DNA of 40,701 nt from contig CADBPC010000043.1 of the NCBI GenBank assembly GCA_902796425.1, positions 1 to 40,701 of the forward strand, given 5' to 3'. Origin of the DNA: an uncultured Lachnospiraceae bacterium (GTDB lineage Bacteria > Bacillota > Clostridia > Lachnospirales > Lachnospiraceae). Positions 1 to 14,071 of this stretch are shown here, one piece after another (within the stretch, counting starts at the first letter, position 1; each line of letters begins with the position of its first letter). The translations under genes and the position numbers were made by a program. The notes beneath the pieces were generated by a model. The model saw nothing but the letters and a program-made list of their open reading frames with translations. It was not told the origin of the DNA and did no database searches.

Positions 1-780
1 CGCGTCTCTCCCCGGCGCCTTGATATCTCTCGGATTGGAGGCTCCGCAGGCAAGAATCACGCTGTCATATTCCTCCAGGAGGCTCTCGGCAGGCACGCTC
101 CTTCCGACATCCGCATTCAGGACAAACCGGACACCTGCCTTTTCCATGAGGCGGATTCTCCTGTCGACCAGCGACTTATCAAGCTTCATATTGGGAATGC
201 CGTATCTTAACAGTCCTCCTGCCCTGTCTCTTCTCTCATAGACCGTGACCTCGTGTCCCCTGCGGTTTAAGAGCTGCGCTGCTGCCAGTCCGGACGGCCC
301 GCTCCCCACAACGGCAACCCTTTTCCCGGTTCGGACAGGGGGCGCTGTCTCTTCGACAAGGCCGTTCTCAAAGGCGTACTCGATCACCGCCTTCTCGTTC
401 TCCTTCGTCGCAACCGGGGCGCCGTGATACCCGCACGTGCAGGCCGCCTCACACAGGGCGGGACATACGCGGCTTGTGAACTCCGGAAAGCTGTGCGTAA
501 CCGAAAGCCTCTGATAGGCCTGCGCCATCCTTCCCCTGCAGACAAGGTCATTCACCTCCGGCACCAGGTTGTTTAAAGGACACCCGGAAGCCATGCCGCT
601 TATCATGACGCCCGCCTGGCAGAACGGGATGCCGCAGTCCATGCACCTCGCCGCCTGCTCCTGCTGCCCGGGCAGGGGAAGTCTTAAGTGAAATTCCTTA
701 AAGTCCTTTATCCTTTCCTCTTCGCTCCGGACAGGACCATCCTTTCTTTCATAATCAAGAAATCCGGTTACTTTTCCCAT
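1..780 (-). CDS. gltD: Glutamate synthase small subunit GltD, 3' end outside the window
   Basis: Small (NADPH/FAD, iron-sulfur) subunit of glutamate synthase, which passes electrons to GltB to turn glutamine plus 2-oxoglutarate into two glutamates. The visible 260 residues start at ATG 780, with an AAAGGA ribosome site 8-9 bases upstream. The N-terminal cluster-binding domain shows CMDCGIPFC (Cys46, Cys49, Cys54) and GCPLNN (Cys67), followed by a second Cys-rich patch (VCPALCEAACTC). A dinucleotide-binding motif VVGSGPSGLAAA follows, as in the GltD/dihydropyrimidine dehydrogenase family. It lies 35 bases after the gltB stop on the same strand, so the two are almost certainly cotranscribed from the gltB promoter. 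The gene runs off the left edge. Identification is firm. Confidence 0.95.
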   Translation of the reverse strand, partial: MGKVTGFLDYERKDGPVRSEEERIKDFKEFHLRLPLPGQQEQAARCMDCGIPFCQAGVMISGMASGCPLNNLVPEVNDLVCRGRMAQAYQRLSVTHSFPEFTSRVCPALCEAACTCGYHGAPVATKENEKAVIEYAFENGLVEETAPPVRTGKRVAVVGSGPSGLAAAQLLNRRGHEVTVYERRDRAGGLLRYGIPNMKLDKSLVDRRIRLMEKAGVRFVLNADVGRSVPAESLLEEYDSVILACGASNPRDIKAPGRDA

Positions 781-5389: not shown

Positions 5390-5423
5390 AAGGGCGCTTC
5401 AGGTATAAACCTGAAGCGCCCTT
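5390..5423 (-). terminator. Leader attenuator hairpin before gltB
   Basis: Two perfect 15-base arms (5390-5404 and 5409-5423) enclose a 4-base loop, followed by a short U-rich run (UUUCUG). The hairpin ends 23 bases before the gltB start codon, so it can only act as an attenuator of gltB. Its 5' arm (in RNA, 5423-5409) shares 11 bases with the small hexaloop hairpin at 5413-5428, so the two structures exclude each other. Confidence 0.75.
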
Positions 5424-5428
5424 GCCTC
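5413..5428 (-). promoter_or_regulatory. ANTAR-type hexaloop hairpin P2 of the gltB leader
   Basis: In the RNA, GAGGC and GCUUC pair (one G-U) around the six-base loop AAGGGC. The loop has A at position 1 and G at position 4, the pair known to be needed for ANTAR-protein binding. It overlaps the 5' arm of the gltB attenuator. The role in antitermination is inferred from layout and from the matching loops before glnA, amt and asnB. Confidence 0.65.
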
Positions 5429-5457
5429 TGATTATCATTCAATACAAATGTATAATT

Positions 5458-5473
5458 ATGCCGCCTTTGACAT
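5458..5473 (-). promoter_or_regulatory. ANTAR-type hexaloop hairpin P1 of the gltB leader
   Basis: AUGUC and GGCAU form a five-pair stem (one U-G) around the loop AAAGGC, again A1 and G4. It lies at the very 5' end of the predicted gltB transcript and 29 bases before P2. Known ANTAR targets are two hairpins in tandem, and gltB is the only leader here that shows both clearly. Confidence 0.6.
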
Positions 5474-5480
5474 CAGAGAC

Positions 5481-5509
5481 ATTATAGTTCCGTATCAGAA
5501 GATTGTAAA
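5481..5509 (-). promoter_or_regulatory. gltB promoter
   Basis: On the minus strand TTTACA (5509-5504) and a perfect TATAAT (5486-5481) are 17 bases apart. The predicted transcript start is near 5474, one base before the P1 hairpin. This promoter lies in the gap after the PEP-synthase-like gene, so gltBD can be transcribed independently of it. Confidence 0.75.
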
Positions 5510-5523
5510 GTCAGTATTCGGCT

Positions 5524-8103
5524 TTACGCCTTCAGGATGAGAGCGACTTTTTCTTCCCTGAGGTCGTGCAGTACTCTGCACCCGAGGGCTGACACGTCGC
5601 AGATTCTTACAATTTCCTCCATCTTTTTTTCTTCAGGGAACAGATCAGCCAGGATATTGGGCAAATGTATCAGCTTCTCCGGGTGCCAGGCAAGCGTGTG
5701 CTCATTTTCGAAGACAGCGGTGTACAGGATATCCGCCTCCACAAGATCCTGGAAAATATGGCTTCCGTAGGACAGCTCCGGATTATATCCGACCCGGGAC
5801 TCTGCCACTTCGCACAGGACCTCAAACTCGCTGATGTCGGAAAAAGCTGTCGGAACGCCCAGCTCCGGGGAGGAGGTACCGACCCTGCCGGGAACAATCA
5901 GCATCATATGCTTCCCGAGCCCGCGGTATTTCCAGTTGATCCGTCCGATCAGTCCTGCCACGCGGTGCTTTTCACTGTACGGCATTTTGTAGTACTCCTG
6001 AGGATCCACATAGATAATCATATCCAGACCGATATCCCTGGAGAGCCCCATCGACGCCCCCTTAAGGTTCATCAGAAGGCTCTCCTCCGGCAGCTGATCC
6101 GGGACCGTAATCTCTCCGGTATCCATGAATACCTTCAGCGGCCGGCACTGAAGCAGGTTGATCATATAATCTCCCTCGGCGGACTGGTTGACTGTAAACT
6201 CAATGTCAACCGGCTGTCCGTACTCCTCCTGGAGGGTCTTAAGAATCTCACGGAACTGCCCCGTCATTTCACGATTTCTCACAAGTCCTCTGCAGGAAAT
6301 AAACAGTATTTGGCGACAGCTTCCCATTTCCCGGAAGCGCTCCTCCGCCTCATAATCGTTCTCCAGCAGGAGCCTTTTAAGATATTCGGGGAGTTCCGGG
6401 AGCACCTCCTCCAGGGGAAGACGTGAGAGCGCCCGCTTCCTGAAATCAATCAGTTCAAGTTTCCTTTGGGAAAACTGGTGCCTCTCGGCAATGGTCGTCA
6501 GCGCCGTGGCCTCCGGGTTATCCAGATTGACGAGCCTGGGATAGGAGCCCTCCGTGCGGTCCACCGCAGAAGTTCCAAGACCCATGACAAGACGCAGCAT
6601 TCCGGCGGACGGATCCATCGTCTCAAGGAACCGGTAAGGGCTGTAGGAATAGCCCACGCCCGCGGCGCAGGGCATATAAAGCTGTCCGTAGCGTGAGCCC
6701 GACACTCTCTGAACCAGCACCGCCATCTGCTCATCCCGCCCCGAGAGGCCCCTCCTTTTCCTGTAGTCGAGTGCGGACAGGCTCATCGTGCTTGCGTAGA
6801 CCTGCCTTACCGCGTTTTCAAACTCATTCAGGCGCTCCTCCATTGTCCCCGTATTCGCGCAGAAGACAGAATCGTATTTTCCGGCGAACGCGTTTCCGAA
6901 CCCGTCCTCCAGGATACTGCTGGAGCGCACGATAATCGGATCCTGTCCGTAGTAGTCCAGAAGGAAGGAGAATCTGTCTTCCATCTGCTTCGAAAAGCTC
7001 CCCGAAAGCAGCCGGTCCGCAAAGGTATCTGCCAGCGAAAAGTACTCCTCCTCGGTTCTCTGGCGGATCCTCAGATCCCAGAATCCATTTTCAACAATAT
7101 AGCTGTAATAGACATCGGAGCCGATATAGAAGGAATCGTGCGGCTCCATGATGTCGGCAAGCTCCGGCATGCTGCTTTGTACTATTTTTCTTGCGAGAAG
7201 CATTCCGCACGCCTTCCCGCCGATCATGCCGGTCCCGATCATTCGGTCGCGGACAAGGAAATAATCCTCCGGAGTAAAATGCCTGCGTATCAGGATGCGC
7301 ATCCTCTCGTCCCGGCTCATCATAATATCGCACATGCGGCTGCAGGCATCCGAAATATCCGCCCCGCTTTCATACATCTGCTGGGATATGTTAAAAAACC
7401 GGTCCCAGGCATCCGTATTCTGTTCTGCTCCGGAGCGCTGATAACGGTTCATCGCCTGATAGAACCTGCTCAGCCGGACACCGTCGAGAAGAGGACTGCA
7501 TTTTCCGGTATCCGGCTCATACAGATGCGGCAGGAACATGGTCTGCGAATTCCTGTTCCATACCTTGTCCGGCCGCACATAGACCGCCCTGCCGCCTGAA
7601 TAGACGTCAAGGAATAGCTGCGTTGTGTCCTGAATCTTTGCGATCGCCTGCAGAGAATGTTTTCCCCGGATCAGCGGAAAGAAAGCGACCGTATCGAGGC
7701 TGAACAGGAACGGACAGGTCACTCTGAAAAAATTCCCCATCATCAGGTCCGTAGCCCACGCCGTTTGCAGCTCGGAGAGACAGTCAAAGACGTAAAACGC
7801 ATCCCTTCCCTCCTTCTCGATCAGGTTATGGATATTCACCGTGAAGGTCTCAAACCTGTGGGACAGCTCGATCTGCACGGTCCGGACCGCCGGCTGGCCG
7901 GTTACAAGGGGAGGATGGCTGGCAAACCGCACATATATAATATTCCTCCCGTCGCGGACCGCCTGCTCCACAAAGGGATCAAGAAACAGATGAAATTCAT
8001 CAAGGTCCGAGACCCGGAAGACGACATTGTCCCCCATTCGGATGTTGTCAACCATCCTGTCGACTTCCGGAATTCCCGACAGAACACGTTCAAAAGCTGC
8101 CAT
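5524..8103 (-). CDS. PEP/pyruvate-binding (PEP-synthase-like) protein of unknown role
   Basis: An 859-residue protein starting at ATG 8103 with a GGGGG ribosome site 7 bases upstream. The middle (about residues 290-640) is the ATP-grasp domain of the PEP synthase/PPDK N-terminal family: IGGKACGMLLA, VRSSSILEDGFGNAFAGKYDS, VQRVSGSRYG and a closing LLQCRPL. The C-terminal part has a GRVGTSSPELGVPT motif and YGSHIFQDLVE, seen in uncharacterised PEP/pyruvate-binding proteins. The N-terminal 170 residues look like a RecA/KaiC-type fold (LSGIPEVDRMVDNI) without a recognisable Walker A. I see no swivelling domain with the phospho-histidine and no C-terminal PEP-binding barrel, so it is unlikely to be a true PEP synthase. 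It lies 42 bases downstream of amt and before gltB, which suggests a nitrogen-linked or regulatory role. Its biochemical function is unknown. Confidence 0.75.
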   Translation of the reverse strand: MAAFERVLSGIPEVDRMVDNIRMGDNVVFRVSDLDEFHLFLDPFVEQAVRDGRNIIYVRFASHPPLVTGQPAVRTVQIELSHRFETFTVNIHNLIEKEGRDAFYVFDCLSELQTAWATDLMMGNFFRVTCPFLFSLDTVAFFPLIRGKHSLQAIAKIQDTTQLFLDVYSGGRAVYVRPDKVWNRNSQTMFLPHLYEPDTGKCSPLLDGVRLSRFYQAMNRYQRSGAEQNTDAWDRFFNISQQMYESGADISDACSRMCDIMMSRDERMRILIRRHFTPEDYFLVRDRMIGTGMIGGKACGMLLARKIVQSSMPELADIMEPHDSFYIGSDVYYSYIVENGFWDLRIRQRTEEEYFSLADTFADRLLSGSFSKQMEDRFSFLLDYYGQDPIIVRSSSILEDGFGNAFAGKYDSVFCANTGTMEERLNEFENAVRQVYASTMSLSALDYRKRRGLSGRDEQMAVLVQRVSGSRYGQLYMPCAAGVGYSYSPYRFLETMDPSAGMLRLVMGLGTSAVDRTEGSYPRLVNLDNPEATALTTIAERHQFSQRKLELIDFRKRALSRLPLEEVLPELPEYLKRLLLENDYEAEERFREMGSCRQILFISCRGLVRNREMTGQFREILKTLQEEYGQPVDIEFTVNQSAEGDYMINLLQCRPLKVFMDTGEITVPDQLPEESLLMNLKGASMGLSRDIGLDMIIYVDPQEYYKMPYSEKHRVAGLIGRINWKYRGLGKHMMLIVPGRVGTSSPELGVPTAFSDISEFEVLCEVAESRVGYNPELSYGSHIFQDLVEADILYTAVFENEHTLAWHPEKLIHLPNILADLFPEEKKMEEIVRICDVSALGCRVLHDLREEKVALILKA

Positions 8104-8145
8104 ATGTATCCCCCTTGTTCCGTACCCCGCCTGCTGCGAAACAGA

Positions 8146-9918
8146 TTATTCCACATCCTGGAGCGCCGCGAACCCCTCTTCGCCTGTCCGGATCTTGACG
8201 ACACGGCTGACCGGGTAGACAAAGATCTTGCCGTCCCCGATATGACCGGTGTACAGCGATTTCTTGGCCGCTGCAATGACATCGTCCACAGGAATCGCGC
8301 TGACTACAACCTCGAGCTTGACCTTCGGAAGGAGGGTTGCGTCGATTTCGACGCCGCGGTATCTCTCGCCGGCTCCCTTCTGGATGCCGCATCCCATGAC
8401 CTGTGTGACCGTCATGCCCGTGACGCCGAGCTCGTTCATGGCTCTCTTTAAGGCGTCATATCTTGTGAGCTTTGCGATAATGACAACCTTTGAGATCCCT
8501 GTGCTGATTCCTGCAAGATCTGCGCCGTCGGCACGGATGACCGGAACCGCCGCGTTCTTCTTTGCCTCGGAAGCCTCCTCATAGGTGTCTGTCCCGAGGT
8601 TCGTGTTCTCGTTGACCTGCATTGTCATGGTGTTGGAAATATCCATGATAGAGAAGCCTGCATAAGCTGAGGGGAGGCCGTGCTCCGTGGAATCCAGGCC
8701 CATGATTTCCTCCTCCTCACTGACTCGAAGGCCGATCGTAAGCCGGATCACCGTAAAGGCAATGTAGATTGTGACTACCGTCCAGGCGATGGTGACAAAC
8801 ATCCCGCCGAGCTGTTTGAAAAGCTGCGTAAAGCCGCCGCCGTAGAAAAGGCCCTCCCGGATTCCCGCGACCGCAAAGCCGGGTGCCGTTTCGGTAGCAA
8901 AAAGACCTACGGCAATCGTTCCCCAGATTCCGTTGAACATATGCACCGCAACGGCACCGACGGGATCATCAACGTGGGAGACGTTATCATTGAACCAGAC
9001 ACCGAACACGACCAGGAGACCCGAGACAGCGCCGATGATCGCCGCACCCGCGCAGTCCGTGACATCGCAGGGCGCCGTGATGGCGACCAGTCCCGCCAGT
9101 GATGCGTTCAGGCACATGGAGACATCCGGCTTTCCGTATTTGATCCAGGTAAACAGCATGCAGACCACGGTAGCTACTGCAGGAGCGACCGTCGTTGTCA
9201 GAAATACCGATCCCAGCGTCGGTACGTCGGTCGCGGCAGCTCCGTTGAAGCCGTACCAGCCAAGCCACAGGATGAAGACTCCGAGTGCAGCGACAACCAG
9301 GTTGTGACCCGGGAACGCGTTGACCTTTGTGACCCTGCCGTCTTTGTCCTTCTCGAATTTGCCGATCCTCGGTCCCAGCATCCAGGCGCCGATAAAGGCA
9401 CAGATTCCGCCGACCATGTGGATGCAGTTGGAGCCCGCATAATCATGGAAGCCCCACTGTGCGAGGAACCCTCCGCCCCAGGTCCAGTGCGCCTCGATCG
9501 GATAGATAAGAGCGGAAATCACAGCCGAATACACACAATAGCTGGAAAACTTCGTGCGCTCCGCCATGGAACCGGAAACGATCGTTGCGGTTGTCGCGCA
9601 GAAGACAAGGTTGAACACAAAGGCCGAATAATCAAAGTTCGCATAGTTTGTAAATACATCAAAACTGAAGCCTCCGGCAAAGCCCTTCAGAATATTGGGC
9701 CCCAGCATCAGCGACGCTCCGCAGATAAACCACATCACGGTGCCGATACAGAAATCCATCAGGTTCTTCATGATGATGTTGCCGGCGTTCTTTGCCCTGG
9801 TAAAGCCTGCCTCACACATGGCAAACCCCGCCTGCATCCAGAACACAAGCGCAGTTCCGATCAGGAACCATACGGCGAATATCTCTCCGTCCAGCAGTTT
9901 CATAATTTCTTCTGTCAT
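8146..9918 (-). CDS. amt: Ammonium transporter fused to a C-terminal PII domain
   Basis: A 590-residue fusion. Residues 1 to about 400 are an 11-helix Amt/Mep/Rh ammonium channel, with the two pore histidines visible as His167 (YAGSNCIHMVGG) and His326 (DDPVGAVAVHMFNG). After a linker of about 70 residues, residues 472-590 form a GlnB/GlnK-type PII domain (KVVIIAKLTRYDALKRAM, then the T-loop around 509-530, then LPKVKLEVVV). In E. coli PII the uridylylated residue is Tyr51; here the aligned position is Ile525 (YRGVEI), so this PII cannot be controlled by uridylylation at that site. PII normally blocks the pore according to 2-oxoglutarate and ATP/ADP. Start at ATG 9918 with GGGAGG 8 bases upstream. 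The leader carries an attenuator-type hairpin. Confidence 0.93.
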   Translation of the reverse strand: MTEEIMKLLDGEIFAVWFLIGTALVFWMQAGFAMCEAGFTRAKNAGNIIMKNLMDFCIGTVMWFICGASLMLGPNILKGFAGGFSFDVFTNYANFDYSAFVFNLVFCATTATIVSGSMAERTKFSSYCVYSAVISALIYPIEAHWTWGGGFLAQWGFHDYAGSNCIHMVGGICAFIGAWMLGPRIGKFEKDKDGRVTKVNAFPGHNLVVAALGVFILWLGWYGFNGAAATDVPTLGSVFLTTTVAPAVATVVCMLFTWIKYGKPDVSMCLNASLAGLVAITAPCDVTDCAGAAIIGAVSGLLVVFGVWFNDNVSHVDDPVGAVAVHMFNGIWGTIAVGLFATETAPGFAVAGIREGLFYGGGFTQLFKQLGGMFVTIAWTVVTIYIAFTVIRLTIGLRVSEEEEIMGLDSTEHGLPSAYAGFSIMDISNTMTMQVNENTNLGTDTYEEASEAKKNAAVPVIRADGADLAGISTGISKVVIIAKLTRYDALKRAMNELGVTGMTVTQVMGCGIQKGAGERYRGVEIDATLLPKVKLEVVVSAIPVDDVIAAAKKSLYTGHIGDGKIFVYPVSRVVKIRTGEEGFAALQDVE

Positions 9919-9938
9919 CTGTTTTTCCTCCCATTTAA

Positions 9939-9985
9939 AGAGGCCATCCCCTCCGGCTTTCCACGCCTTTGTGGGGATGACCTCT
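9939..9985 (-). terminator. Leader attenuator-type hairpin before amt
   Basis: Arms 9939-9951 and 9973-9985 pair over 13 positions with one G-U. The loop between them contains the AAAGGC hexaloop hairpin. Only a short U stretch (UUU, then AAA) follows, so termination strength is uncertain. It ends 20 bases before the amt start codon. Confidence 0.5.
9961..9974 (-). promoter_or_regulatory. ANTAR-type hexaloop hairpin in the amt leader
   Basis: CCAC and GUGG pair around the loop AAAGGC, identical to the loops before glnA and in gltB P1. Unlike the other leaders, this hairpin sits on top of the larger stem and overlaps it by only two pairs, so the two are not fully exclusive. Confidence 0.5.
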
Positions 9986-10071
9986 CAGTCACACATATTA
10001 TTCTTTCGGGACGGTCCGCGGATCATCTGCCCGCGCGGCCTTCCTTCTCCTTTTCTGTTCCTCTCTGCTTC

Positions 10072-12171
<2,100 letters not shown>

Positions 12172-12193
12172 AATCTCCTCCTTACTGAACGCG

Positions 12194-12232
12194 AAAAAGG
12201 CGCCTCGGAGAGCTCTTCTCCAAGACGCCTTT
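12194..12232 (-). terminator. Leader attenuator hairpin before glnA
   Basis: Sixteen-base arms (12217-12232 and 12196-12211) with two G-U pairs and a 5-base loop, followed by a run of U (12198-12194). This is the best intrinsic terminator of the four leaders. It ends 22 bases before the glnA start codon, so it must be bypassed for expression. Its 5' arm overlaps the hexaloop hairpin at 12222-12237. Confidence 0.8.
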
Positions 12233-12237
12233 GTCTT
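12222..12237 (-). promoter_or_regulatory. ANTAR-type hexaloop hairpin in the glnA leader
   Basis: AAGAC and GUCUU form five Watson-Crick pairs around the loop AAAGGC (A1, G4). It begins about 6 bases after the predicted transcript start and shares 11 bases with the terminator arm, so forming it would prevent termination. Confidence 0.65.
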
Positions 12238-12248
12238 TACAGTTCGTA

Positions 12249-12277
12249 ATGTTAAACCTGCTTTTCAGAATTGTCAA
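12249..12277 (-). promoter_or_regulatory. glnA promoter
   Basis: A perfect TTGACA (12277-12272) and TAACAT (12254-12249) are 17 bases apart on the minus strand. Transcription is predicted to start near 12243, so almost nothing precedes the hexaloop hairpin. Confidence 0.7.
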
Positions 12278-12314
12278 CAGCAATTTACAGCTTATTGTAT
12301 TGTTTTACAGTTCC

Positions 12315-13967
12315 TTATTCTCCGCTCGCGCCGTAGTTGGACAGGACTCTGGCGGACGGATCTTTGACTTCGCACCCCTCCCATTCGCGGTTCGGCATCC
12401 AGAAGTCGGCGATCATTTCGGCCTGGCCCGGATAATATTTCTCGAAGATGTCCCTGTAGAGAAGGGACTCCTTCGTGAAGGGCTGCGCATAGGTATATTT
12501 CCGGATCCTCTCCTCATATGCGGCGTCAGTGCAGCAGCTTTCCGCATATTCCGCGAGGTCGTCCTTGAGGGAATGGCCGACCGCATCGGAGAAAGCGGCC
12601 TTCTCTCTCCAGAGGATGCTCTCCGGAATCAGGTGATCCTTCTCAAAAGCTTTGCGGAGCAGGTATTTTCCCTTGCCATAGTGATTCATCTTCTTCTCGG
12701 GGTCGATCGACATGCAGTATTCCACAAAGGCAAGGTCGCCGAAGGGGACACGCGCCTCGAGCGAGTTGACGCTGATGCAGCGGTCTGCCCTCAATACGTC
12801 ATACATATGGATTTCCCGGATGCGCTTTTCGGCTTCCTTCTGGAAAGCTTGCGCGTCCGGAGCAAAGTCGGTATATTTATAGCCGAAGATTTCATCGGAG
12901 ATCTCGCCCGTCATAATGACGCGCACATCCGAGGTCTCATGGATCTTCTTGCAGACGAGGTACATGCCGATGGAAGCCCTGACCGTCGTGATATCCCAGG
13001 TGCCCAGAAGCCTGACTACCTCGTCCACGGCGCCGATGACATCCTCCTTCGAGATGATGACCTCGTGGTGGTCGGAGTGGATATAATCCGCCACCTCCCG
13101 GGCGTATTTGAGGTCAATGGCATCCACATCCATCCCGATCGCCCAGGTCTTAAGGGGCTTATCCGTAAGGCTTGCCGCAATCCCGCAGACCAGCGAGGAG
13201 TCGAGGCCGCCGGACAGAAGGAACCCCACCGGCGTATCCGAATCCAGGCGCTTCTTAACGCCCTCAATCAGAAGGTCATGGATCTTCTGCAGGGTCGTCT
13301 CCATGTCATCGTCCGAGGGGTGCTCCACGACGGACATGTCGCGGTATTTGACAAACTCCCCGTCCTTGAAATAGTGTCCCGGAGGAAACGGGTGAATCCT
13401 GCCCACAAGTGTCAGAAGGTTCTTCGGCTCGGAGGCAAAGACATAAGTCCCGTCCTTTGTCACTCCAAAGTAGAGCGGACGGATGCCGACCGGGTCTCTT
13501 GCGGCGACAAAGGAATTCTCCTTCGCATCATAGAGTACCAGCGCGAATTCCGCGTCCAGCATGCGGAACATATCGGTCCCGTATTCCTCATAAAGTGCCG
13601 GCAGTATTTCGCAGTCGGAGTCGCTGATAAAGCGAAAGCCGTCCGATACCAGCCTGTCCCTGAGCGGGCGGAAGCCGTAGATCTCACCGTTGCAGACAAG
13701 CGCGATCTGTGTGTTCTCCGGGGCGGTGAGACAGCCTTCCTCTTCCGAAGCCTCAGCGCAGGGAACGGTCGCCTTATCGGAATAGAGGAAGGGCTGCATT
13801 CCCTCCGGGGTAAGGCCCATGATGGAGAGCCGGTTAAAGCCGAGCCACCCGTTGTCCAGCTTCAAAAGCCTTGTCTGGTCCGGACCGCGCGAGGCCGTCT
13901 GTGAAAGGGCCTCCCGTATCGACTCGTAATCTCCTCCTGCTCCGCAAAAACCGAGTATTGAACACAT
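12315..13967 (-). CDS. asnB: Asparagine synthetase B, glutamine-hydrolysing
   Basis: Makes asparagine from aspartate, ATP and glutamine; 550 residues. The start at 13967 is chosen over a longer frame because it places the nucleophile at Cys2 (MCSILGF) and has AGGAGG about 8 bases upstream. The N-terminal class II amidotransferase domain shows SRGPDQ and NGEIYGF. The synthetase domain has the pyrophosphate loop SGGLDSS at 252-258. It is the first gene of the nitrogen island in transcription order, with its own near-consensus promoter and attenuator leader. glnA follows after 143 bases. Confidence 0.96.
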   Translation of the reverse strand: MCSILGFCGAGGDYESIREALSQTASRGPDQTRLLKLDNGWLGFNRLSIMGLTPEGMQPFLYSDKATVPCAEASEEEGCLTAPENTQIALVCNGEIYGFRPLRDRLVSDGFRFISDSDCEILPALYEEYGTDMFRMLDAEFALVLYDAKENSFVAARDPVGIRPLYFGVTKDGTYVFASEPKNLLTLVGRIHPFPPGHYFKDGEFVKYRDMSVVEHPSDDDMETTLQKIHDLLIEGVKKRLDSDTPVGFLLSGGLDSSLVCGIAASLTDKPLKTWAIGMDVDAIDLKYAREVADYIHSDHHEVIISKEDVIGAVDEVVRLLGTWDITTVRASIGMYLVCKKIHETSDVRVIMTGEISDEIFGYKYTDFAPDAQAFQKEAEKRIREIHMYDVLRADRCISVNSLEARVPFGDLAFVEYCMSIDPEKKMNHYGKGKYLLRKAFEKDHLIPESILWREKAAFSDAVGHSLKDDLAEYAESCCTDAAYEERIRKYTYAQPFTKESLLYRDIFEKYYPGQAEMIADFWMPNREWEGCEVKDPSARVLSNYGASGE

Positions 13968-13989
13968 GATTTTCTCCTCCTGACATGCG

Positions 13990-14028
13990 AAAGGCGCCAT
14001 GGAGAGTATTCCTCTCCATGGCGCCCTT
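13990..14028 (-). terminator. Leader attenuator hairpin before asnB
   Basis: Seventeen-base arms (13990-14006 and 14012-14028, one G-U pair) enclose a 5-base loop, followed by a short U run (UUUCGC). It ends 22 bases before the asnB start. Stem bases differ from those before glnA and gltB while pairing is kept, which supports a selected RNA structure. Confidence 0.75.
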
Positions 14029-14034
14029 GCCCTG
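14017..14034 (-). promoter_or_regulatory. ANTAR-type hexaloop hairpin in the asnB leader
   Basis: Three G-C pairs, one G-A mismatch and two more pairs enclose the loop AAGGGC, identical to the gltB P2 loop. It overlaps the 5' arm of the attenuator. The stem is weaker than in the other leaders, so confidence is lower. Confidence 0.5.
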
Positions 14035-14042
14035 ATGCCTGT

Positions 14043-14071
14043 ATTTTATGTTCATTTTTTCAGTCTGTCAA
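14043..14071 (-). promoter_or_regulatory. asnB promoter
   Basis: Perfect TTGACA (14071-14066) and TAAAAT (14048-14043) spaced 17 bases on the minus strand. The predicted start near 14036 is only a few bases from the hexaloop hairpin. Confidence 0.75.

What the first reader, a model, noticed from the sequence alone, without database searches (positions are those of the whole stretch)
5390..14071. Four nitrogen genes share hexaloop-plus-terminator RNA leaders: a putative ANTAR antitermination regulon
gltB, amt, glnA and asnB each have a terminator-type stem ending 20-23 bases before the start codon, and each leader carries a small hairpin with loop AAAGGC (gltB P1, amt, glnA) or AAGGGC (gltB P2, asnB). 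All five loops are six bases with A1 and G4, the hallmark of RNA bound by ANTAR-domain regulators (established for EutV and relatives). In gltB, glnA and asnB the hairpin overlaps the terminator's 5' arm, so the two are exclusive. Stem sequences differ while pairing is kept. The sequence after the terminators is also similar (UUUC, GCGUU-like, then AGGAGG), suggesting duplicated leaders. A coordinated RNA switch over the whole ammonia-assimilation pathway is inferred.
Basis: partly seen in the sequence, partly recalled or inferred. Interest (0 to 1): 0.85.

Follow-up and report, generated by a model that had tools for sequence, protein, structure and literature searches.

The report
Single-hairpin ANTAR switches controlling nitrogen genes
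In this uncultured bacterium, a relative of rumen bacteria, the genes for taking up and fixing ammonia begin with short RNA switches that one RNA-binding protein probably holds open, and that protein is made alongside what looks like a dead glutamine-making enzyme that may have become its glutamine sensor.

Summary
The gltB, amt, type III glnA and asnB leaders carry A1/G4 hexaloop hairpins that exclude a terminator (3 sites starting a terminator; 0.09 per shuffled window at 12 or more pairs). The ANTAR reading is strongly supported by sequence, not experiment. One ANTAR protein is found in the genome. A covariance model finds only three of these leaders in 3.08 Mb. In 116 genomes of the order it hits 38 of 68 with ANTAR and 0 of 48 without.

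(2) The window overlaps by 87 bases the contig holding the ANTAR gene, so gltB-gltD-dapL-pyrG-carA-carB-GS-like-ANTAR is one gene run behind the gltB leader. (3) The ANTAR protein has a pseudo-receiver; its neighbour is a glutamine synthetase relative that changed five catalytic residues but kept substrate and metal residues, probably its sensor. ANTAR nitrogen regulons and NitR are known; this is a new variant.

The parts
14066..14071 (-). asnB promoter -35 TTGACA
14043..14048 (-). asnB promoter -10 TAAAAT (17-nt spacer); its end lies 11 nt before the hairpin stem
14020..14031 (-). asnB hexaloop hairpin GGC[AAGGGC]GCC
13990..14028 (-). asnB leader terminator, mutually exclusive with the hairpin; R1 E=1e-7 in the genome
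12315..13967 (-). asnB, asparagine synthase B
12272..12277 (-). glnA(III) promoter -35 TTGACA
12249..12254 (-). glnA(III) promoter -10 TAACAT (17-nt spacer); its end lies 11 nt before the hairpin stem
12222..12237 (-). glnA(III) hexaloop hairpin AAGAC[AAAGGC]GUCUU
12196..12232 (-). glnA(III) leader terminator, mutually exclusive with the hairpin; R1 E=2e-9 in the genome
10072..12171 (-). type III glutamine synthetase
9938..9986 (-). amt leader terminator stem (amt lies downstream of glnA(III) on the same strand; I saw no clear promoter of its own by eye)
9961..9974 (-). amt hexaloop hairpin CCAC[AAAGGC]GUGG; its 5' arm is part of the terminator's 5' arm
8146..9918 (-). Amt-PII fusion protein
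5524..8103 (-). PPDK_N-domain protein between amt and gltB
5504..5509 (-). gltB promoter -35 TTTACA (found by eye)
   Evidence: letters
5481..5486 (-). gltB promoter -10 TATAAT (17-nt spacer); the predicted start abuts P1 (found by eye)
   Evidence: letters
5458..5473 (-). gltB P1 hexaloop hairpin AUGUC[AAAGGC]GGCAU
5413..5428 (-). gltB P2 hexaloop hairpin GAGGC[AAGGGC]GCUUC, 29 nt after P1
5390..5423 (-). gltB leader terminator, mutually exclusive with P2; R1 E=4e-9 in the genome
816..5366 (-). gltB, glutamate synthase large subunit; first gene of a run that ends, on the overlapping contig C22, in the ANTAR gene
1..780 (-). 5' part of gltD, continued on contig C22
   Evidence: gene name from recall of the sequence and its place after gltB

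Best explanation
These are ANTAR-controlled transcription-antitermination leaders. RNA polymerase starts a few bases before a small stem-loop with loop AAnGGC. Unassisted, that loop and its 3' arm join a far more stable terminator and transcription stops before the gene. When the genome's ANTAR protein binds the hexaloop as it emerges, the terminator cannot form and the gene is read. glnA(III) and asnB, like most promoter-bearing sites in relatives, have one hexaloop before the terminator, at the transcript's 5' end; gltB has two (P1 at the 5' end, P2 29 nt later on the terminator). The ANTAR protein is encoded at the end of the gene run headed by gltB (gltB-gltD-dapL-pyrG-carA-carB-GS-like-ANTAR), so it probably boosts its own synthesis. 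It has a pseudo-receiver that cannot be phosphorylated in the usual way; it is probably gated, as AmiR is by AmiC and NasT by NasS, by the neighbouring glutamine synthetase-like protein, which changed catalytic residues but kept substrate and metal residues and so could serve as a glutamine (or glutamate) receptor. Low glutamine would free or activate the regulator and switch on ammonia uptake, GS, GOGAT and glutamine-using enzymes. SHOWN by sequence: both exclusive folds, their conservation, promoter-like sequences and their positions, ANTAR co-occurrence and linkage, residue changes. INFERRED: binding, antitermination, sufficiency of one hairpin, autoregulation, the sensor role, the ligand and the direction of the response. 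Step estimates: leaders are ANTAR antitermination targets 0.9; one hexaloop suffices 0.8; autoregulation through the gltB leader 0.75; GS-like protein gates the ANTAR protein 0.55; glutamine is the ligand 0.45. The confidence below is for the leaders being such switches with mostly one hexaloop, not for the sensor.
For: Regulator: one PF03861 protein found in the genome, E 3e-12 (genome 92.55% complete); predicted fold pLDDT 92, whose top PDB matches are Rv1626, EutV with and without RNA, and AmiR. RNA: both exclusive folds covary over 30 rows, hairpin 26 double-change cells against 8.6 in column shuffles, terminator 107 against 27.6 (the rows had been chosen for pairing). Specificity: R1 finds the three leaders at E<=1e-7; the next place has E 0.4. 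Co-occurrence: R1 (E<=1e-4) in 38 of 68 ANTAR-bearing and 0 of 48 other genomes of the order (Fisher 5e-12, not corrected for kinship), 6 of the 38 having given training rows; the R1 site lies within 10 kb of the ANTAR gene in 13 of those 38 (positions). Leaders: loose motif in 68 of 91 gene-by-genome leaders from ANTAR-bearing genomes, 3 of 16 from others, 89 of 2220 shuffled. Single hairpin: 38 of 56 sites have a strong promoter (57 of 2800 shuffled), stem at most 13 nt after the -10 in 35 of 38, no second hexaloop between start and stem in 38 of 38. Operon: C22 ends in the window's first 87 bases, gaps from dapL to ANTAR -26 to +57 nt; the same order stands on one contig in kin G016, and without dapL in G015. 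Partner: GS-like gene beside the ANTAR gene in 40 of 42 loci; 20 of 39 partners longer than 350 aa changed all five catalytic positions and kept 8-9 of 9 others, as one group on the tree with support 100/100. Pseudo-receiver: no acidic pair in 37 of 37 rows with letters there.
Against: No expression, binding or readthrough data exist here. For EutV, removing P1 reduced induction and a 20-nt longer P1-P2 linker abolished antitermination (PMC3369931 and PMC8934654, passages), so a single-hairpin switch departs from the best tested case. By the alignment, with the paper's numbering matched by me, P0001 lacks the EutV RNA-contact residues R168, N173, R175 and R177; M172 is kept and K143/K147 are arginines. 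30 of 68 ANTAR-bearing genomes of the order have no R1 hit at E<=1e-4 (strict filters). At the looser E<=0.05 three of the 12 ANTAR-lacking relatives do have R1 matches (G002 best 3e-4, G020, G040; G002 and G020 are 77% and 87% complete). 18 of 56 sites have no strong promoter by my scan: 3 are gltB P2 sites behind a P1, 7 are second cassettes, 8 are unexplained. 23 of 91 leaders in ANTAR-bearing genomes lack even the loose motif; gltB is weakest, 11 of 20, partly perhaps because gltB starts were uncertain in the parse. R1 finds no site in the ANTAR loci L029-L044 (at most 5 kb flanks). R1 does not find amt of the window. No sensor-regulator complex was modelled.
Confidence: 0.82

Rival explanations
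1. The sites are classical dual-hairpin ANTAR targets whose P1 hairpin was missed because it is degenerate or because transcription starts further upstream.
For: gltB of the window and of kin G011, G015 and G016 has a P1; P1 is required for eut induction (PMC3369931, passages); several amt leaders of relatives have two hairpin-terminator cassettes; 8 of 56 sites have no promoter found and no other explanation.
Against: Near-consensus promoters place the start 0-6 nt before the stem in 35 of 38 sites and no second hexaloop lies between start and stem in 38 of 38; gltB linkers are 29-43 nt, beyond eut's 5-12 (PMC3369931, passage).
Confidence: 0.1
2. The ANTAR leaders are real, but the GS-like protein is not the sensor: the regulator answers to PII, to a small molecule bound by its own pseudo-receiver, or simply to its own level.
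For: An Amt-PII fusion is encoded in the same cluster; adjacency alone does not show contact; in 15 of 39 partners all five catalytic positions are intact, so there the partner may simply be an enzyme.
Against: The GS-like gene is adjacent in 40 of 42 loci, and in 20 of 39 partners all five catalytic positions changed while the fold and the substrate and metal residues stayed, which a pure enzyme role does not explain.
Confidence: 0.35
3. The leaders are metabolite-sensing riboswitches or targets of another antiterminator, and the hexaloop is incidental.
For: Any short hairpin overlapping a terminator could serve other regulators; weak R1 matches occur in three genomes where no ANTAR protein was found.
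Against: No Rfam family reaches threshold and the three weaker matches are unrelated in kind; the leaders are very short for an aptamer; C[AAnGGC]G resembles the published eut pattern AGCAANGRRGCUY (PMC3369931, passage); 0 of 48 genomes of the order without ANTAR carry the RNA at E<=1e-4.
Confidence: 0.04
4. They are ordinary end-of-gene terminators between neighbouring genes.
For: Strong stems with U-tracts lie between genes.
Against: In glnA(III), asnB and gltB they lie between a promoter-like sequence and the gene, the outer hairpin columns covary apart from the terminator, and the pattern recurs before orthologous genes.
Confidence: 0.03

Closest known systems
ANTAR-target leaders of eut, nas and ami operons and predicted nitrogen regulons (Ramesh et al. 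2012, PMC3369931; section 10 part 1 and passages seen)
   Same: A1/G4 hexaloop, P2 overlapping the terminator's 5' arm, several operons of nitrogen genes including ammonium transporters, PII, glutamate and glutamine synthases.
   Different: Their motif is two hairpins with a short linker; here most promoter-bearing sites have one, at the transcript's 5' end, and gltB linkers are 29-43 nt.
Single-hexaloop redefinition of the ANTAR site (Walshe et al. 2022, PMC8934654; passages seen)
   Same: Makes one hexaloop the minimal binding site and calls for bioinformatics of single-hexaloop sites.
   Different: The authors hold that both hairpins are needed for antitermination in front of a moving polymerase; these leaders look like natural one-hairpin antiterminators.
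NitR of Clostridium saccharobutylicum (passage of the review PMC6316151; primary paper not seen) and the ANTAR gene Clo1313_2030 of C. thermocellum (passages of PMC4676874)
   Same: ANTAR regulator said to induce GS/GOGAT genes by antitermination on nitrogen limitation; in C. thermocellum the ANTAR gene lies in a cluster with GOGAT genes, its neighbour Clo1313_2031 is annotated as glutamine synthetase, and the authors suggest an ammonia-linked antiterminator.
   Different: I did not see leader architecture or residue state of the GS there; here the partner has changed catalytic residues and relatives carry sites before PyrG, CarB, GlmS, PurA and DapL.
AmiC-AmiR and NasS-NasT (PMC3369931 and PMC3369936 passages; PMC3795266 search listing only)
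   Same: ANTAR regulator gated by a partner protein that binds the signal; AmiR too has a pseudo-receiver.
   Different: AmiC binds amides and NasS nitrate/nitrite; I found no described ANTAR system with a glutamine synthetase-like partner as sensor.
Bacillus GS-TnrA and GS-GlnR control (passage of PMC6316151; PDB titles)
   Same: A glutamine synthetase passes on nitrogen status by binding a regulator.
   Different: There the partner is an active enzyme and a DNA-binding regulator; here a probable pseudoenzyme and an RNA-binding antiterminator.

Membership tests
Classical dual-hairpin ANTAR-target RNA (Ramesh 2012) | Hexaloop with A1 and G4 on a stem of at least 3 bp | tested here: met
   Five hairpins in four leaders
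Classical dual-hairpin ANTAR-target RNA (Ramesh 2012) | A hexaloop hairpin overlaps the 5' arm of an intrinsic terminator | tested here: met
   4 of 4 leaders, energies; covariation
Classical dual-hairpin ANTAR-target RNA (Ramesh 2012) | Second hexaloop P1 upstream of P2 with a short linker | tested here: not met
   glnA(III) and asnB have no transcribed room for it if their promoters are right; gltB has P1 but a 29-nt linker; amt not settled (no promoter seen); 0 of 38 promoter-bearing sites have a second hexaloop between start and stem
Single-hexaloop ANTAR site (Walshe 2022) | One hexaloop with G4 (and A1) on a paired stem, in a genome with an ANTAR protein | tested here: met
Single-hexaloop ANTAR site (Walshe 2022) | ANTAR protein binds it | not testable with these tools
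   needs a binding assay
ANTAR regulator with pseudo-receiver (AmiR/NasT-like) | C-terminal ANTAR domain after a long helix | tested here: met
   PF03861 45.7 bits against cut-off 27.3; predicted helix 113-161 then ANTAR helices, EutV and AmiR among the best fold matches
ANTAR regulator with pseudo-receiver (AmiR/NasT-like) | Receiver lacks acidic pair and phospho-Asp | tested here: met
   acidic pair absent in 37 of 37 rows with letters; Asp at the phospho column in 6 of 41 rows, serine in P0001
ANTAR regulator with pseudo-receiver (AmiR/NasT-like) | Signal-binding partner encoded next to it | tested here: inconclusive
   GS-like gene adjacent in 40 of 42 loci; ligand and contact not shown
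Type I glutamine synthetase (enzyme), for P0004 | GS fold | tested here: met
   pLDDT 90 model, TM 0.94 to a solved GS
Type I glutamine synthetase (enzyme), for P0004 | Catalytic Asp of FDGSS, flap Glu, NRS Asn and Arg, IRIP Arg (roles from recall) | tested here: not met
   all five changed in P0004 and in 20 of 39 partners longer than 350 aa
NitR system of C. saccharobutylicum | Sequence relation of regulator and leaders | not tested
   its sequence and primary paper were not fetched

The most novel reading that the evidence does not exclude
A glutamine synthetase that lost catalysis has become a dedicated glutamine receptor that directly gates an unphosphorylatable ANTAR antiterminator, and this regulator works on a single hexaloop at the very 5' end of most of its transcripts, controlling ammonia assimilation, glutamine-using enzymes and its own gene.
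Probability: 0.42. Interest if true: 0.85.

Novelty: new variant of a known kind. Interest (0 to 1): 0.66.

Why it matters
The 2022 structural work reduced the ANTAR binding site to one hexaloop but left open whether one-hairpin sites work in nature; here are many candidates, with promoters that leave no room for a second hairpin before the terminator, so the question becomes directly testable. The pseudo-GS/pseudo-receiver pair is a concrete hypothesis for how these bacteria read their glutamine level, parallel to GS-TnrA control but at the RNA level (I did not look for GlnR or NtrC in this genome). Searches built on the dual motif would be expected to miss the single form, so ANTAR regulons may be larger than catalogued.

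Tried and rejected
Rfam at gathering threshold and at E<=1 gave nothing relevant. A hidden P1 was looked for by eye in the window's glnA(III), amt and asnB leaders and by script between start and stem of the 38 promoter-bearing sites; none with A1/G4 and three pairs. I looked for a hexaloop on the ANTAR contig, before carA included: none; this made sense once the contig overlap showed that the ANTAR gene belongs to the gltB run. R1 does not model the amt geometry, so amt-type sites elsewhere in the genome may be missed. Covariation was measured on 30 rows: 29 chosen by hand from the 56 sequences plus the window's gltB P2; those 56 had been filtered for pairing, so these counts lean towards the structures. 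Co-occurrence in the 41 relatives (R1 E<=1e-5 in 22 of 29 with ANTAR at E<=0.001, 0 of 12 without) is weaker evidence than the order sample because the training rows came from these genomes; at E<=0.05, 3 of those 12 have matches. One of those 29 (G013) is under Pfam's curated cut-off. The parse placed the window's own gltB start wrongly, so its P2 is not among the 56 sites; other gltB starts are uncertain by up to 42 nt. Of 111 parsed leaders 4 were dropped as repeats of a gene in a genome, leaving 107. One of 40 GS partners (L017, 293 aa, cut by the end of the fetched stretch) was dropped before the residue count; L026 (contig edge) and L028 had no GS-like match. The 42 loci come from two collections and may hold the same species twice. 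Literature: searches; among the papers listed I saw none on a GS-like pseudoenzyme paired with an ANTAR protein, and only PMC8934654 holds 'single hexaloop' with ANTAR. Most subscription papers are not in that library, and the supplementary tables of PMC3369931, which list its predicted sites, could not be opened.
Full report
1. WHAT IS THERE. The window is the whole contig C43 of an unnamed, incomplete genome of 3.08 Mb. Relatives of its ANTAR protein in named genomes are uncultured Lachnospiraceae, Clostridiales and Eubacterium assemblies, several labelled rumen. On the minus strand lie asnB, type III glutamine synthetase, an Amt-PII fusion, a PPDK_N protein and gltB. The mini-hairpins are weak (-2.8 to -4.6 kcal/mol), the terminators strong (-26.4 to -33.4), so the hairpin needs help to win. 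In gltB, glnA(III) and asnB the loop itself is the first part of the terminator's 5' arm; in amt the hairpin's 5' arm is.

2. MORE THAN CHANCE. Scanning both strands for an A1/G4 hexaloop with at least three pairs, G-C closed, that starts a terminator of 10 or more pairs gives exactly three sites in the window, against 0.7 per shuffled window (0.09 at 12 or more pairs, which all three exceed). I collected leaders of the four genes from 41 genomes, own included; 111 leaders were parsed, 107 after dropping repeats. A loose motif, C[AAnGRn]G with three or more pairs, occurs in 68 of 91 leaders from ANTAR-bearing genomes and 3 of 16 from the others, against 89 of 2220 shuffled leaders. By gene in ANTAR-bearing genomes: amt 19 of 23, asnB 17 of 23, glnA(III) 21 of 25, gltB 11 of 20. 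Some asnB rows are distant paralogues and some gltB starts are uncertain.

3. TWO EXCLUSIVE FOLDS. On 30 aligned sites the hairpin forms standard pairs in 87.3% of cells with 26 double changes (shuffled 8.6), the terminator in 95.6% with 107 (shuffled 27.6); sliding the partner by one to three columns drops the covariation score from 0.473 to at most 0.124 and from 0.621 to at most 0.144. The 5' stem columns pair only in the hairpin, so their covariation speaks for the antiterminator itself. The rows had been filtered for pairing, which inflates these figures. A covariance model, R1, scored over the whole genome, finds glnA(III) (E 2e-9), gltB (4e-9) and asnB (1e-7); apart from the same stems read on the other strand the next hit has E 0.4. 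It does not model amt.

4. THE REGULATOR. One ANTAR protein is found in the genome: P0001, 196 aa, contig C22. Its predicted structure (pLDDT 92) matches best Rv1626, EutV and AmiR. In a sample of 116 genomes from 82 genera of the order, R1 (E<=1e-4) hits 38 and PF03861 hits 68; all 38 are among the 68, none among the 48 without ANTAR (Fisher 5e-12, not corrected for kinship). Against this, 30 of 68 have no R1 hit, and in the smaller set of 41 relatives three of 12 ANTAR-lacking genomes have matches between E 3e-4 and 0.05. In 13 of the 38 the RNA lies within 10 kb of the ANTAR gene on the same contig (positions).

5. ONE HAIRPIN, AT THE 5' END. Of 56 non-redundant sites 38 have a strong TTGACA/TATAAT-type promoter within 60 nt (57 of 2800 shuffled upstream stretches reach that score). 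In 35 of 38 the stem begins at most 13 nt after the -10, that is about 0-6 nt after the expected start; in 38 of 38 no second A1/G4 hexaloop lies between start and stem. Of the 18 others, 3 are gltB P2 sites behind a P1, 7 are second cassettes and 8 have no promoter found. Of nine further loci read, five of them already in the set above, eight have a promoter score of 10.5 or more and seven of those the stem within 13 nt. The dual P1-P2 motif that defined ANTAR targets (PMC3369931, section 10 part 1 and passages) is therefore not met by most. gltB is the exception: the window and kin G011, G015 and G016 have P1 and P2, with linkers of 29, 30, 43 and 33 nt, while in eut a 20-nt extension abolishes antitermination (PMC8934654, passage). 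That paper redefines the minimal binding site as one hexaloop and asks for bioinformatics of single ones. Some amt leaders of relatives carry two hairpin-terminator cassettes in tandem (L122, L124, L127; also L119, L121 and L126); whether the two act together is open.

6. THE REGULATOR IS ENCODED BEHIND gltB. The right end of C22 is identical to the first 87 bases of the window, so the contigs are very probably neighbours. Read on, gltB is followed by gltD, dapL, pyrG, carA, carB, a GS-like gene and the ANTAR gene, all on one strand; measured gaps from dapL to ANTAR are -26 to +57 nt (pyrG, carA, carB and dapL named; gltD by recall of its sequence). Kin G016 holds the same order on one contig, and G015 the same without dapL, each with an R1 site before gltB. 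The gltB leader therefore probably controls the regulator's own gene.

7. THE PARTNER. In 40 of 42 ANTAR loci a GS-like gene lies next to it on the same strand, gaps -23 to 416 nt. The receiver has lost the acidic pair in 37 of 37 rows with letters and has Asp at the phospho column in only 6 of 41 (the alignment is loose for distant rows): a pseudo-receiver. The window genome's GS-like protein folds as a glutamine synthetase (TM 0.94 to a solved one), but against the enzyme 7tdp it has changed the FDGSS Asp, the flap Glu, the NRS Asn and Arg and the IRIP Arg; 20 of 39 partners longer than 350 aa share changes at all five while keeping 8 or 9 of nine other substrate and metal positions (roles of these positions from recall). 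Fifteen of the other 19 keep all five; four changed one to three. The 20 form one group with support 100/100 on a tree that still held those columns. So the pairing with ANTAR looks older than the loss of catalysis, and 12 aligned members of the group remain 63-80% identical to P0004, which points to a kept role other than catalysis. By analogy with AmiC-AmiR (PMC3369931, passage) and NasS-NasT (PMC3795266, listing only), I infer a ligand-sensing partner; glutamine is the natural candidate. A GS-annotated gene beside an ANTAR gene in a GOGAT cluster was already noted for C. thermocellum by locus numbers (PMC4676874, passages).

8. REGULON IN RELATIVES. I read 21 further R1 sites, picked. Fourteen precede a gene I could name: DapL (four), CarB (two), GlmS, an acetolactate synthase, a GlnQ-like transporter ATPase, two aminotransferase types, adenylosuccinate synthase, CTP synthase, and a gene resembling the window's PPDK_N protein (by eye). 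Nine of these were checked against NCBIfam as fragments, below whole-protein cut-offs; the rest are by eye. Seven sites (L198, L205, L209, L212, L213, L215, L217) gave no named gene, among them the weak own-genome hit L215. The theme is glutamine and nitrogen use.

9. LIKELY WORKING. Low glutamine, partner releases or activates P0001, P0001 grips the hexaloop as it emerges, terminator blocked, gene read; high glutamine, the reverse. The direction rests on NitR, said to induce GS/GOGAT genes on nitrogen limitation (review PMC6316151, passage). None of the protein steps is shown here.

10. STANDING. As a kind it is known: ANTAR antitermination of nitrogen genes was predicted widely in 2012, and NitR is reported. 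Membership in the classical dual-hairpin motif fails on its P1 feature; membership in the single-hexaloop ANTAR site is met so far as sequence can show. New, as far as my searches go, are the systematic one-hairpin 5'-terminal form, the gene run that ends in the regulator, and the catalytically changed GS as probable sensor.

Noticed in passing
window 8146-9918: Ammonium transporter and PII signal protein are fused in one 590-aa protein (Pfam Ammonium_transp 16-415, P-II 476-580).
   Followed up: partly
window 5524-8103: An 859-aa PPDK_N protein of unknown role sits between amt and gltB; a similar start (by eye) follows an R1 site in relative G008 (L211), so it may belong to the nitrogen regulon.
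   Followed up: partly
L122, L124, L127 (amt leaders of relatives): Two hairpin-terminator cassettes in tandem about 60 nt apart before amt, as if two attenuators in series.
   Followed up: no
gltB leaders of G000, G011, G015, G016: In three of the four genomes the third loop base is the same in P1 and P2 (T/T, A/A, C/C; window A/G), hinting at co-evolution or gene conversion.
   Followed up: no
window 1-87 and the right end of contig C22: Exact 87-base overlap of two contigs, as at a break in an assembly graph; the window's gene run goes on in C22.
   Followed up: yes
G000:C36:6477-6932: A second type III glutamine synthetase in the same genome, 61% identical over the matched N-terminal part; R1 found no site there.
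   Followed up: no
L222 9668-11313 (G016): The pyrG gene of this relative is split over two reading frames, a frameshift or an assembly error.
   Followed up: no
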